Assembly: GCA_016280595.1 (NCBI GenBank)
Contig: JAEEHB010000060.1
Location: forward strand, 1-64,000
Reading direction: 5' to 3'
DNA from: Clostridiaceae bacterium
GTDB lineage: Bacteria; Bacillota; Clostridia; Oscillospirales; Acutalibacteraceae
DNA: 64,000 nt
Position numbers and translations under genes: made by a program. This document shows positions 54,699 to 57,647 of this stretch, piece by piece (within the stretch, counting starts at the first letter, position 1; the number at the start of each line of letters is the position of its first letter). The notes beneath the pieces are model-generated. The model saw only the letters and a program-made list of their open reading frames with translations. It did no database searches and was not told where the DNA came from.

Positions 54699-54730
54699 CG
54701 CCGCGGACAGTTAAGTCCGCGGCGCCTTTT
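54699..54730 (+). terminator. tRNA terminator
   Basis: CGCCGCGGAC-agttaa-GTCCGCGGCG-CCTTTT. Confidence 0.85.
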
Positions 54731-54808
54731 CATTTGCAAATAAATCTATTGAAACATACGCCTTGATGTGCTATACTTCTTATGAAGAAAAAACAGGAGG
54801 TCATTATT

Positions 54809-55330
54809 ATGGGTCTGTTTTCCAAAATACTCGGCGGCGGCGAAAACGCCGACAAAGCCGAGCAGATGGCAAAAGATTTGCTCAAAGGCATTATGAACGG
54901 CGCGGTTTCCGCCGAAAAGAAAGACGAGCAGCAGCCTCAGCAGAGCGCGCCCTCATCTTACGCCCCCACGCAGGGTAAGCCGAAGCAGGGCTTTTCGTGG
55001 GGCGACGTGAAACCCGACGAAGAAAACCAGTTTGATTATCCCGGCCCCTATTACGAATATTTCAAAAAGATTTACTCCGAGGAATTCCCCGGCTACGACC
55101 TTCGGTGCGAGGTTGTCAATGAAGGCGCAAGGGCGGCAATAGCCTTTATTTCCGATGACAGAACCGCTCTTATGGTAGAACTCGTTTCCGAAAACTCCAC
55201 CGCCGACAAACTCCGCAGAAGATGCAAGGCCAACGGCATCCCATATCTCCGTTTCTATCACAATCATCACGGCTGGTGGAACACCCGCGCTTATGTAGTT
55301 GAGCGCACCCGCAAGGCGCTGGGCGCCTGA
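54809..55330 (+). CDS. Hypothetical protein, C-terminal domain possibly nuclease-like
   Basis: ATG with AGGAGG RBS; low-complexity linker then ALMVELVSENSTADKLRRRCKANGIPYLRFYHN. Confidence 0.7.
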   Translation: MGLFSKILGGGENADKAEQMAKDLLKGIMNGAVSAEKKDEQQPQQSAPSSYAPTQGKPKQGFSWGDVKPDEENQFDYPGPYYEYFKKIYSEEFPGYDLRCEVVNEGARAAIAFISDDRTALMVELVSENSTADKLRRRCKANGIPYLRFYHNHHGWWNTRAYVVERTRKALGA

Positions 55331-55340
55331 TAATTTCACA

Positions 55341-55482
55341 TAAAACAGAAAGAGAATGCTTTGCGCCTGCGGCGGACCCGGCACGGACTTTTCAGAGTGC
55401 TTCGCAGGCAGTGTGCCCGTGTACGGTCCCGTACATTCAGGGTAATTAACCCTGGATTTAATTTCTTCTCTTTCTGTTTTTA
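55341..55482 (+). ncRNA. Candidate structured RNA associated with the reverse transcriptase gene
   Basis: Perfect 15-bp inverted repeat AAAACAGAAAGAGAA (55342-55356) / TTCTCTTTCTGTTTT (55466-55480) enclosing stems GCCTGCG/CGCAGGC (55365-55371/55403-55409), TGTACG-gtcc-CGTACA (55420-55435), CAGGGT-aatta-ACCCTG (55438-55454). Confidence 0.6.
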
Positions 55483-55507
55483 TTTTATCTGATAAAAGGT
55501 AAACGCC

Positions 55508-56716
55508 ATGTCAATGCTCGATTCCCTTTCCGAAAGAGAAATGTGGGAAAGGTTTTATTCTTACAAATCAACGCTTAAATCTTCGCCGTATTTTGCAGAT
55601 GAGCTGCGCGCTTTTATTGACGGCGTGGAGTACCTGCCCGTGTGTGAAACGATAAACGGCGGCGGGGAGTTTCCTCTGCCGCGCAAAATGATGATAAGCA
55701 AACTCAGCACGCAGAAAAAGAGGACCGTCTATGTTTATCCCGACAGGGAAAATATGGTGCTCAAAATGCTCACTTTTATGCTCCTGCGAAAGTACGACAG
55801 CCTGTTTGCCTCAAACCTCTATTCCTTCCGCCCGCACCGCAGCGCGAAGGATGCCGTGCGCTTTCTGAGGAAAGAAGTCGCGGGCAAAAACCTGTATTAC
55901 TACAAAGCGGATATTCACGATTATTTCAACAGCATTCCCGTGCCCGCTCTCTTGCCTGTGCTTAAAGACGTGACGCAGGATGACCCGAAACTTTATACCT
56001 TCCTCGAAAAACTGCTCACGGAGGAGCGCGTGCTTGACGGCGGCAAAGAAATCACCGAGCGCAAGGGAATAATGGCGGGCACGCCGCTCTCATCCTTCTA
56101 TGCCAATCTCTACCTCTGTGACCTCGATGCTCATTTTGAAAAGGCGGGCATCACATACGCCAGATACTCCGATGATATTATCGTTTTTGCCGCCGCGCCT
56201 GAGGAGAGCGAAGCAAACGCGCGGTTTATACGCTCTTTTCTTGCGGAAAAGGGGCTTGAAATCAACCCCGAAAAAGAGTATTCGGGTACTACGGACGACG
56301 GCTGGACTTTTCTCGGCTTTGAGATGCGCGGCGACACGGTGGATATTTCGCCCGTCACCTTAAAAAAACTCAAAAATAAAATGCGCCGCAAAAGGGATGC
56401 CCTTCACCGCTGGCAAAAGCGAAATGACGCGGGCGGCGAGAGCGCGGCAAAAGCGTTTATCAGAGTGTTCAACCGCAAACTCCTCGAGAGCCCCGAGGGT
56501 AATGAACTGAGCTGGAGTTACTGGTTTTTCTCAGTTATCAACACAGATAAAAGCCTTCGCGAAATCGACGCCTACGCGCAGGACTGCATCAGATATCTCG
56601 TGAGCGGCTCTCACCGCAAATCCCGCTTCAACGTGCGGTATGAGGATATGAAAAAACTCGGCTACAAAAACCTTGTGCACGAATACTACGCGTTTACGGA
56701 AGATAATAACGAATAA
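55508..56716 (+). CDS. Reverse transcriptase, stand-alone (402 aa)
   Basis: RT motifs: SFRPHRSAKDAVRFL, YYYKADIHDYFNSI, KGIMAGTPLSSFYANLYL, YARYSDDIIVF, GLEINPEKE, FLGFEM. Confidence 0.92.
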   Translation: MSMLDSLSEREMWERFYSYKSTLKSSPYFADELRAFIDGVEYLPVCETINGGGEFPLPRKMMISKLSTQKKRTVYVYPDRENMVLKMLTFMLLRKYDSLFASNLYSFRPHRSAKDAVRFLRKEVAGKNLYYYKADIHDYFNSIPVPALLPVLKDVTQDDPKLYTFLEKLLTEERVLDGGKEITERKGIMAGTPLSSFYANLYLCDLDAHFEKAGITYARYSDDIIVFAAAPEESEANARFIRSFLAEKGLEINPEKEYSGTTDDGWTFLGFEMRGDTVDISPVTLKKLKNKMRRKRDALHRWQKRNDAGGESAAKAFIRVFNRKLLESPEGNELSWSYWFFSVINTDKSLREIDAYAQDCIRYLVSGSHRKSRFNVRYEDMKKLGYKNLVHEYYAFTEDNNE

Positions 56717-56720
56717 AAAC

Positions 56721-56751
56721 AACTGCCGGTCTGTCAAGACCGGCAGTTTTA
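56721..56751. terminator. terminator after RT
   Basis: AACTGCCGGTCT-gtca-AGACCGGCAGTTTT. Confidence 0.9.
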
Positions 56752-56765
56752 TGTATTTACTGTAT

Positions 56766-57647
56766 TTATATCACATAATATTCCGCGAGGGTTTCCGTCA
56801 GAGCGCGGCACACTCCCGTGAACAGATGCTCTTCATAGGGCACTTTATCCATCAGCGTCACATTTGCGCCCGAGGTGCTTTCAACGGAGGGAAACACCTT
56901 GTGCCCTTCGCCGTTTGCCCTCACTTCGTCCGTTTCGGTTACGCCCGAGTTCGCTATCAGTTTATCCATAGCCCTGCTGAGTTCGGCAATCTCGGCGTCC
57001 GCTTCTTTCGCGAGGTAATTGAGCAGATACACTTTGTCCTCCGACGGCAGTTTGTAGATATAGTTCTGCGTTTTGCTGAGTTCCTCCTGCCAGCGTCTGA
57101 GTTTCGCCCTCTCTTCCGCTATGGTGAAGGTCCTGTTTTTGCCATCCGCGTCTTTGGTGTAGAGGCTGTTCACCTCGTTGAATATATCCATAAGGTCGAG
57201 CAGGTCATAACGGATTTCAAAGTATTCATCATAGAGCGAACTTATATTGCCGAGTTTTTCCGAGAGCGCGTATACCGAAGCGCCTATTCCGGACGGGAGA
57301 GAGCCCGCGCGGGAGGCTATATCTGAGGCTTTTGCGTTCCACTCTCTGATTTTGTCTATATCAAAATCCGTGAGCATTGCCGGGTAGCCGGAATTAATCT
57401 CCTCGCGCAGAGCACAGTAGTCTTTGAGGGCGAGAGCTTTTTCGCTGTCCTGCTTTTCGAGCAGGCTTGCGGCTGAGGCGAAGTTTCCGTTTTCCGCTTT
57501 TTTCTGAGCCGAGAGAAAAACGAGGCTGTCCTTCGCAAGGAAAAGAGCAATGCAGGAAATCAAAATGACGGCAGCGGCACAGACCGCAATCACAAGTTTC
57601 CTGCGGCCGCCGTCTTTTTTGTTTTGCACCGTCATTTCAGTGTTCAT
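56766..57647 (-). CDS. Hypothetical membrane-anchored coiled-coil protein
   Basis: N-terminal TM helix KLVIAVCAAAVILISCIALFL; helical extracellular part. Confidence 0.75.
   Translation of the reverse strand: MNTEMTVQNKKDGGRRKLVIAVCAAAVILISCIALFLAKDSLVFLSAQKKAENGNFASAASLLEKQDSEKALALKDYCALREEINSGYPAMLTDFDIDKIREWNAKASDIASRAGSLPSGIGASVYALSEKLGNISSLYDEYFEIRYDLLDLMDIFNEVNSLYTKDADGKNRTFTIAEERAKLRRWQEELSKTQNYIYKLPSEDKVYLLNYLAKEADAEIAELSRAMDKLIANSGVTETDEVRANGEGHKVFPSVESTSGANVTLMDKVPYEEHLFTGVCRALTETLAEYYVI

What the first reader, a model, noticed from the sequence alone, without database searches (positions are those of the whole stretch)
55341..56750. Stand-alone reverse transcriptase preceded by a structured RNA closed by a 15-bp perfect inverted repeat: candidate retron/DRT-like system
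Seen: AAAACAGAAAGAGAA (55342-55356) and TTCTCTTTCTGTTTT (55466-55480) are perfect reverse complements enclosing 109 nt with at least three further stems; the RT ORF starts 27 nt downstream and the unit ends at a strong terminator (56721-56751). Known: retrons have inverted repeats a1/a2 bounding msr-msd upstream of the RT, and some defence RTs (e.g. DRT2) use an upstream ncRNA as template. Against a classical retron: I see no clear VTG or NAxxH motif, the catalytic motif is YSDD, and the C-terminus (SYWFFSVINTDKSLREIDAYAQDCIRYLVSGSHRKSRF...LGYKNLVHEYY) looks like a different RT clade. A new RT/ncRNA lineage is therefore possible (inference).
Basis: partly seen in the sequence, partly recalled or inferred. 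Interest (0 to 1): 0.85.

Follow-up and report, generated by a model that had tools for sequence, protein, structure and literature searches.

The report
UG26 reverse transcriptase–RNA defence cassette
This is a compact three-part cassette (a small protein, a folded RNA and a reverse transcriptase) from a gut bacterium that belongs to a catalogued but experimentally unstudied group of probable anti-phage systems; the RNA is real and conserved, and probably serves as the short template that the enzyme copies again and again into repetitive DNA.

Summary
The 15-bp inverted repeat (55342-55356 / 55466-55480) is the only one of its kind in the window and closes a strongly folded 139-nt RNA. It is not a new lineage. 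The core RNA is Rfam RT-5 (RF03026, 77.7 bits), the enzyme is PADLOC group UG26 (568 bits), and the RT is not stand-alone: the gene just upstream (54809-55330) is PADLOC RTasCOG2852, present upstream of 101 of 114 related RTs. The RNA is found at 99 of 100 UG26 loci searched. In two genomes it lies 1.2 and 7.4 kb from the RT, behind its own TATAAT box, so it is an independent RNA, not an RT leader. In the nearest relative, other genes occupy the site of exactly this 2-kb cassette. Retron is excluded. Best explanation (0.6): a Class-2-type DRT in which the invariant UUUAA loop 3' of hairpin P3 is a short template for repetitive, probably protein-primed cDNA, as in DRT9 and DRT10. Structure and association are shown; template, priming and defence are inferred. 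The direct-repeat test of the template is only suggestive.

The parts
54809..55330 (+). Partner gene: small protein with a predicted N-terminal helix, a disordered linker and a C-terminal alpha/beta domain (PADLOC RTasCOG2852)
   Evidence: PADLOC 189 bits; present upstream in 101/114 UG26 loci; AF2 model, C-terminal domain pLDDT mostly above 90
55342..55480 (+). Structured RNA: Rfam RT-5 core plus closing stem P1
   Evidence: RF03026 77.7 bits at 55361-55469; extended model R1 matches 99/100 loci; fold z -5.7
55342..55356 (+). P1 closing stem, 5' strand
   Evidence: covaries with 55466-55480: 12 of 15 pairs with changes on both sides; test free of selection
55365..55371 (+). Pseudoknot 5' strand GCCUGCG, pairs with 55403-55409
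   Evidence: 98.9% of cells paired, 5 of 7 pairs with changes on both sides
55374..55429 (+). P2 irregular stem with apical hairpin; its loop 55403-55409 CGCAGGC is the pseudoknot 3' strand
   Evidence: 10 of 13 P2 pairs with double changes
55436..55456 (+). P3 hairpin, immediately 5' of the candidate template loop
   Evidence: all 7 pairs covary
55457..55465 (+). Loop UUUAAUUUC between P3 and P1 3' strand: candidate template (AUUU-A-AUUU at 55456-55464 in this window)
   Evidence: UUUAANNNN; positions 2, 4 and 5 invariant in 95/95; template role inferred
55466..55480 (+). P1 closing stem, 3' strand
55508..56716 (+). UG26 reverse transcriptase, 402 aa
   Evidence: PADLOC RT_UG26 568 bits; AF2 pLDDT 92
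56165..56176 (+). Catalytic YSDD (residues 220-223)
   Evidence: Y220, D222 and D223 in 106/106, S221 in 105/106 homologues
56684..56689 (+). C-terminal Tyr393-Tyr394: candidate protein primer
   Evidence: Y394 in 99/106, Y393 in 89/106; role inferred from DRT9/DRT10
56721..56748 (+). 12-bp inverted repeat followed by a short T-run, probable terminator of the cassette
   Evidence: sequence
54722..56774 (.). Variable segment between conserved flanks (tRNA-Leu side and lipoprotein/hydrolase side); holds exactly this cassette here and other cargo in the nearest relative G040
   Evidence: blastn of the window against G040

Best explanation
A three-component UG26 DRT cassette: COG2852-like protein, RT-5 RNA and UG26 RT. 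The RT binds the RNA, whose P1 closing stem, pseudoknotted P2 and hairpin P3 form a scaffold that presents a 9-nt single-stranded loop (UUUAANNNN) to the active site, with P3 as the 5' template boundary. The RT copies this short segment repeatedly by template resetting, probably starting from a C-terminal tyrosine, and makes tandem-repeat cDNA; for this window the prediction is (TAAAT)n. The cDNA-bearing complex, with the partner protein as accessory or effector, acts against phage. Shown: the three parts, their conservation, the RNA structure, and that the RNA can be a separate transcription unit. Inferred: RNA binding, template choice, priming, product and defence.
For: RT and partner match DRT models. 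Next-best PADLOC groups after UG26 include UG4, UG17 (= DRT10), UG27, DRT9, Drt3a and DRT2, several of which use ncRNA templates (PMC12483538, PMC12632851, PMC13174585). The fold matches group II RTs, then DRT9 and DRT2. The RNA is present at 99/100 loci and all helices covary. The UUUAA loop is nearly invariant although unpaired and lies just 3' of a stable hairpin and before the closing stem, the place of the template in DRT10 (PMC12632851). DRT10-type loci fetched here show a similar 13-18-bp closing stem around 104-117 nt in L126 and L127. Direct repeats flanking the loop are longer than in composition shuffles (3.46 vs 2.92, 0/500) and slightly longer than when halves are swapped among 68 representatives (p = 0.0065). 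A C at the foot of P3 leaves it unpaired and goes with CUU in A' (p = 0.011). C-terminal Tyr pair conserved. The RNA with its own TATAAT box lies far from the RT in L118/L119.
Against: Nothing here shows RNA binding, cDNA or defence. The direct-repeat signal is weak when counted as repeats of 4 nt or more against swaps (p = 0.18 for 72 representatives; 5 nt or more p = 0.03). UUUAA may be a binding signal rather than a template. Tyr394 is replaced by His or Trp in 6 of 106. The model R1 does not recognise DRT10 RNAs, so the resemblance is of layout only. The cassette sits among ordinary chromosomal genes, not a visible defence island.
Confidence: 0.6

Rival explanations
1. Same UG26-RNA complex, but the RNA is a structural or regulatory cofactor and not the template: the RT makes untemplated or phage-templated DNA, and UUUAA is a recognition signal.
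For: UUUAA is invariant, unlike the variable DRT10 template; the direct-repeat evidence is weak against swaps.
Against: RTs with known ncRNA templates (DRT10, DRT9, Drt3a, DRT2) are among the next-best profiles; DRT9 and Drt3a also have conserved templates (PMC12483538, PMC13174585).
Confidence: 0.2
2. Cis-acting leader or attenuator that controls expression of the downstream RT.
For: The RNA usually lies directly upstream of the RT, and P1 is followed by a U-rich tract.
Against: In L118 and L119 the RNA is 1.2 and 7.4 kb from the RT with other genes, some on the opposite strand, between them; L079 has a gene inserted between RNA and RT. No alternative anti-terminator fold was seen.
Confidence: 0.07
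3. Retron: P1 is the a1/a2 repeat and the RNA is an msr-msd copied once into branched msDNA.
For: Inverted repeat around a structured RNA upstream of an RT.
Against: VTG and NAxxH in only 2/106 homologues each; retron_St85 score 55.7 against cut-off 235; UG26 model wins by more than 400 bits; Rfam assigns RT-5; retron structures rank below group II, DRT9 and DRT2.
Confidence: 0.02
4. A domesticated housekeeping RT without a defence role, for example in repair or DNA modification of gut Clostridia.
For: No close relatives in sequenced phages or plasmids; ordinary chromosomal neighbours.
Against: Patchy distribution (19/198 relatives), no conserved neighbours other than the partner, cassette-sized replacement at one site, and the UG/Abi kinship.
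Confidence: 0.1

Closest known systems
UG26 group of UG/Abi reverse transcriptases (PADLOC RT_UG26 with RTasCOG2852)
   Same: RT matches over its full length at 568 bits, partner at 189 bits
   Different: Nothing tested differs; this is a member. The model library names no RNA and no mechanism
Rfam RF03026 RT-5 RNA
   Same: Full-length match 1-104 at 77.7 bits, gathering score 45.7
   Different: The Rfam structure shown lacks the 15-bp closing stem and the pseudoknot, both supported here by covariation
DRT10 (UG17 RT + SLATT + ncRNA)
   Same: Three-part operon; RNA with long closing stem around about 104-117 nt; candidate template 3' of a stable hairpin; conserved C-terminal hydroxyl residues
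   Different: Partner is a COG2852-like protein, not SLATT; no RNA sequence homology found; loop sequence is conserved rather than variable
DRT9 (UG28)
   Same: Conserved U-rich loop in the ncRNA, C-terminal tyrosine pair, similar RT fold (PMC12483538)
   Different: DRT9 has no partner protein and a poly-U template; here the loop is UUUAANNNN and the RT is about 90 residues shorter
Retrons
   Same: Inverted repeat bounding a structured RNA next to an RT
   Different: RT motifs and families differ; RNA can lie far from the RT

Membership tests
UG26 RT (UG/Abi, DRT) | Full-length match to the group's RT model, clearly above neighbouring groups | tested here: met
   568 bits against 117 for the next UG group
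UG26 RT (UG/Abi, DRT) | Associated RTasCOG2852 gene | tested here: met
   54809-55330, 189 bits; 101/114 loci
UG26 RT (UG/Abi, DRT) | Anti-phage activity | not testable with these tools
   No experiment found in the held open-access papers
RT-5 RNA (RF03026) | Score above gathering threshold | tested here: met
   77.7 against 45.7
Retron | VTG and NAxxH motifs in the RT | tested here: not met
   2/106 homologues each
Retron | Match to a retron RT family at its cut-off | tested here: not met
   retron_St85 55.7 against 235
Group II intron RT | NCBIfam TIGR04416 at cut-off and intron RNA present | tested here: not met
   116 against 300; no group II intron match in Rfam
DRT10 | UG17 RT and SLATT partner | tested here: not met
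   UG17 113 bits against UG26 568; partner is COG2852-like
DRT10 | A-B-A' template repeat in the ncRNA loop | tested here: inconclusive
   AUUU-A-AUUU in the window; enriched over composition shuffles, weak against swaps
DRT9 | Conserved C-terminal priming tyrosines | tested here: inconclusive
   Y394 99/106, Y393 89/106; closeness to the active site not measured
Class 2 DRT (ncRNA-templated) | RNA-templated repetitive cDNA | not testable with these tools
   needs cDNA sequencing

The most novel reading that the evidence does not exclude
UG26 is a further telomerase-like antiviral RT: it uses the UUUAANNNN loop of RT-5 RNA for protein-primed tandem-repeat cDNA, and its COG2852-like partner, a restriction-endonuclease-like fold without a recognisable catalytic triad, senses or wields that DNA. 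This would be a DRT type with a new partner and a nearly fixed template sequence.
Probability: 0.45. Interest if true: 0.75.

Novelty: new member of a known kind. Interest (0 to 1): 0.55.

Why it matters
The parts of this system are catalogued separately (RT_UG26 and RTasCOG2852 in PADLOC, RT-5 RNA in Rfam); no description of all three as one system was found in the papers available here. Putting them together gives a complete, clonable cassette with a defined RNA, a nine-base candidate template and a precise predicted product, so the idea that Class 2 DRTs generally make repetitive cDNA from a short loop can be tested on an unstudied group. The nearly fixed UUUAA loop contrasts with the variable template of DRT10.

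Tried and rejected
Retron and group II intron readings. A cis-regulatory leader. Phage or plasmid origin: no close relatives in phages, plasmids or IMG/VR. Homology of the RNA to DRT10 RNAs: model R1 and Rfam found nothing significant at the ncRNA position of five UG17 loci; the best R1 hit (18.4 bits, L127) lies inside the RT gene. Family assignment of the partner by Pfam or PDB sequence: nothing; its fold search gave only a weak match to EcoT38I endonuclease (E = 0.006), and the motif glutamate is lost in divergent members, so an active nuclease is not claimed. Mestre 2022 (UG/Abi) and Weinberg 2017, the sources I recall for UG26 and RT-5, are not in the library, so what they say of each other's part could not be checked.

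Full report
Observation. The two 15-nt arms at 55342-55356 and 55466-55480 are perfect reverse complements around 109 nt, and this is the only such repeat (15 bp, 40-250 nt apart) in the window, against none in 100 simulated windows. The RNA folds far better than shuffles (z = -5.7).

What it is. Rfam names the RNA: RF03026, RT-5, 77.7 bits, full length. PADLOC names the enzyme, RT_UG26 at 568 bits with the next UG group at 117, and also the gene just upstream, RTasCOG2852 at 189 bits. So the RT is not stand-alone. Among 114 related loci, 101 carry the COG2852-like gene directly upstream of the RNA, and in 50 loci with enough flank no other neighbour recurs beyond a spurious antisense frame and a scattered ABC-transporter-like family at inconsistent positions.

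The RNA. An alignment of 26 diverse sequences (A2) supports five helices: the closing stem P1, a pseudoknot between GCCUGCG (55365-55371) and the P2 loop CGCAGGC (55403-55409), P2, its apical hairpin, and P3. In all, 92% of cells pair, and 36 of 45 pairs show changes on both sides; no shuffle and no slid version comes near. Those 26 were picked because a closing stem could be seen, so P1 was retested without that selection: a sequence profile of the core alone found 101 distinct copies, and their flanks pair at a mean score of 15.2, against 12.1 when arms are swapped between loci and 8.2 when shuffled; for 48 copies with divergent arms the figures are 13.7 observed and 9.7 swapped. The closing stem is therefore real, and lies outside the Rfam model. 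A covariance model of the whole RNA finds it at 99 of 100 loci; the exception is L078.

An independent RNA. Conversely, 15 genomes found by RT-5 alone (14 of them over the Rfam cut-off) all carry a UG26 RT, in 13 close by and in two at 1.2 and 7.4 kb. Those two genomes have no detectable COG2852 partner, and the RNA there follows its own TATAAT box. Of nine loci where the partner gene was not detected, six have a perfect TATAAT 22-27 nt before the core, that is, just upstream of P1. L079 has a gene inserted between RNA and RT. A leader or attenuator is therefore unlikely, and the partner is accessory to a minimal RNA-RT pair.

Setting. In the nearest relative with both flanks (G040, 83-88% protein identity) the same tRNA-Leu and flanking genes surround different cargo, a large glycosidase-like gene and a subtilase-like gene; the part unique to the window, about 54722-56774, is exactly the cassette. 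Distribution is patchy (19 of 198 relatives), mostly rumen and gut Clostridia, and without close phage or plasmid relatives.

How it may work. The RT model is confident (pLDDT 92), and its best full-length matches are group II RTs, then DRT9 and DRT2. DRT9 copies a conserved U-tract from C-terminal tyrosines (PMC12483538), DRT10 copies an A-B-A' loop downstream of a stable hairpin (PMC12632851), and Drt3a copies a conserved ACACAC loop placed likewise (PMC13174585). RT-5 has the corresponding layout: hairpin P3, then a 9-nt loop UUUAANNNN, then the 3' strand of the closing stem. Positions 2, 4 and 5 are invariant in 95 of 95. In this window AUUU-A-AUUU (55456-55464) would give (TAAAT)n. Other members show different matching repeats: GAUUU in L002, GCUUU in L059, GUUUU in L026, CUGUU in L033.

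How strong the template evidence is. Repeats are longer than in composition shuffles (0/500). When 5' and 3' halves are swapped among loci the excess is small: mean p = 0.0065 for 68 representatives, but p = 0.18 for repeats of 4 nt or more and 0.03 for 5 nt or more. An independent hint is that a C at the foot of P3, which breaks its pair with U, goes with CUU in A' (p = 0.011). Several related tests were made on the same data, so these p values should be read loosely. The C-terminal Tyr pair is well but not perfectly conserved, and its distance to the active site was not measured.

The partner. It has a predicted N-terminal helix, a disordered linker and an alpha-beta-beta-beta-alpha-beta-alpha domain with a weak resemblance to a restriction endonuclease. 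Conserved residues are Y83, N157, V162 and R165 in A4 numbering, while the would-be catalytic glutamate is lost in divergent members. A non-catalytic nucleic-acid-binding or effector role is a guess.

Verdict. A new member of a catalogued but, as far as the held literature shows, functionally unstudied kind. New here: the three parts joined, the RNA extended by P1 and the pseudoknot, its independence from the RT, and a specific template prediction.

Noticed in passing
L118 (RNA at about 2913 of the reverse strand) and L119 (about 2715): RT-5 RNA as a separate gene 1.2 and 7.4 kb from its UG26 RT; in L119 the RT starts directly behind a large HD-GYP-like gene.
   Followed up: partly
L060 4790-4986 and L069 4777-4991: Two RNAs carry 55-75 nt of extra hairpins at the tip of P2 while everything else is kept.
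   Followed up: partly
L078: A UG26 RT (60% identity) with no recognisable RT-5 RNA or COG2852 gene upstream.
   Followed up: no
L063: A UG26 cassette on a 2.3-kb contig assigned to Phoenicibacter (Actinomycetota); either transfer between phyla or a binning error.
   Followed up: no
L190 2239-8102: In the nearest relative the tRNA-Leu site holds a large glycosidase-like gene and a subtilase-like gene instead of the cassette, so it looks like an exchange site.
   Followed up: partly
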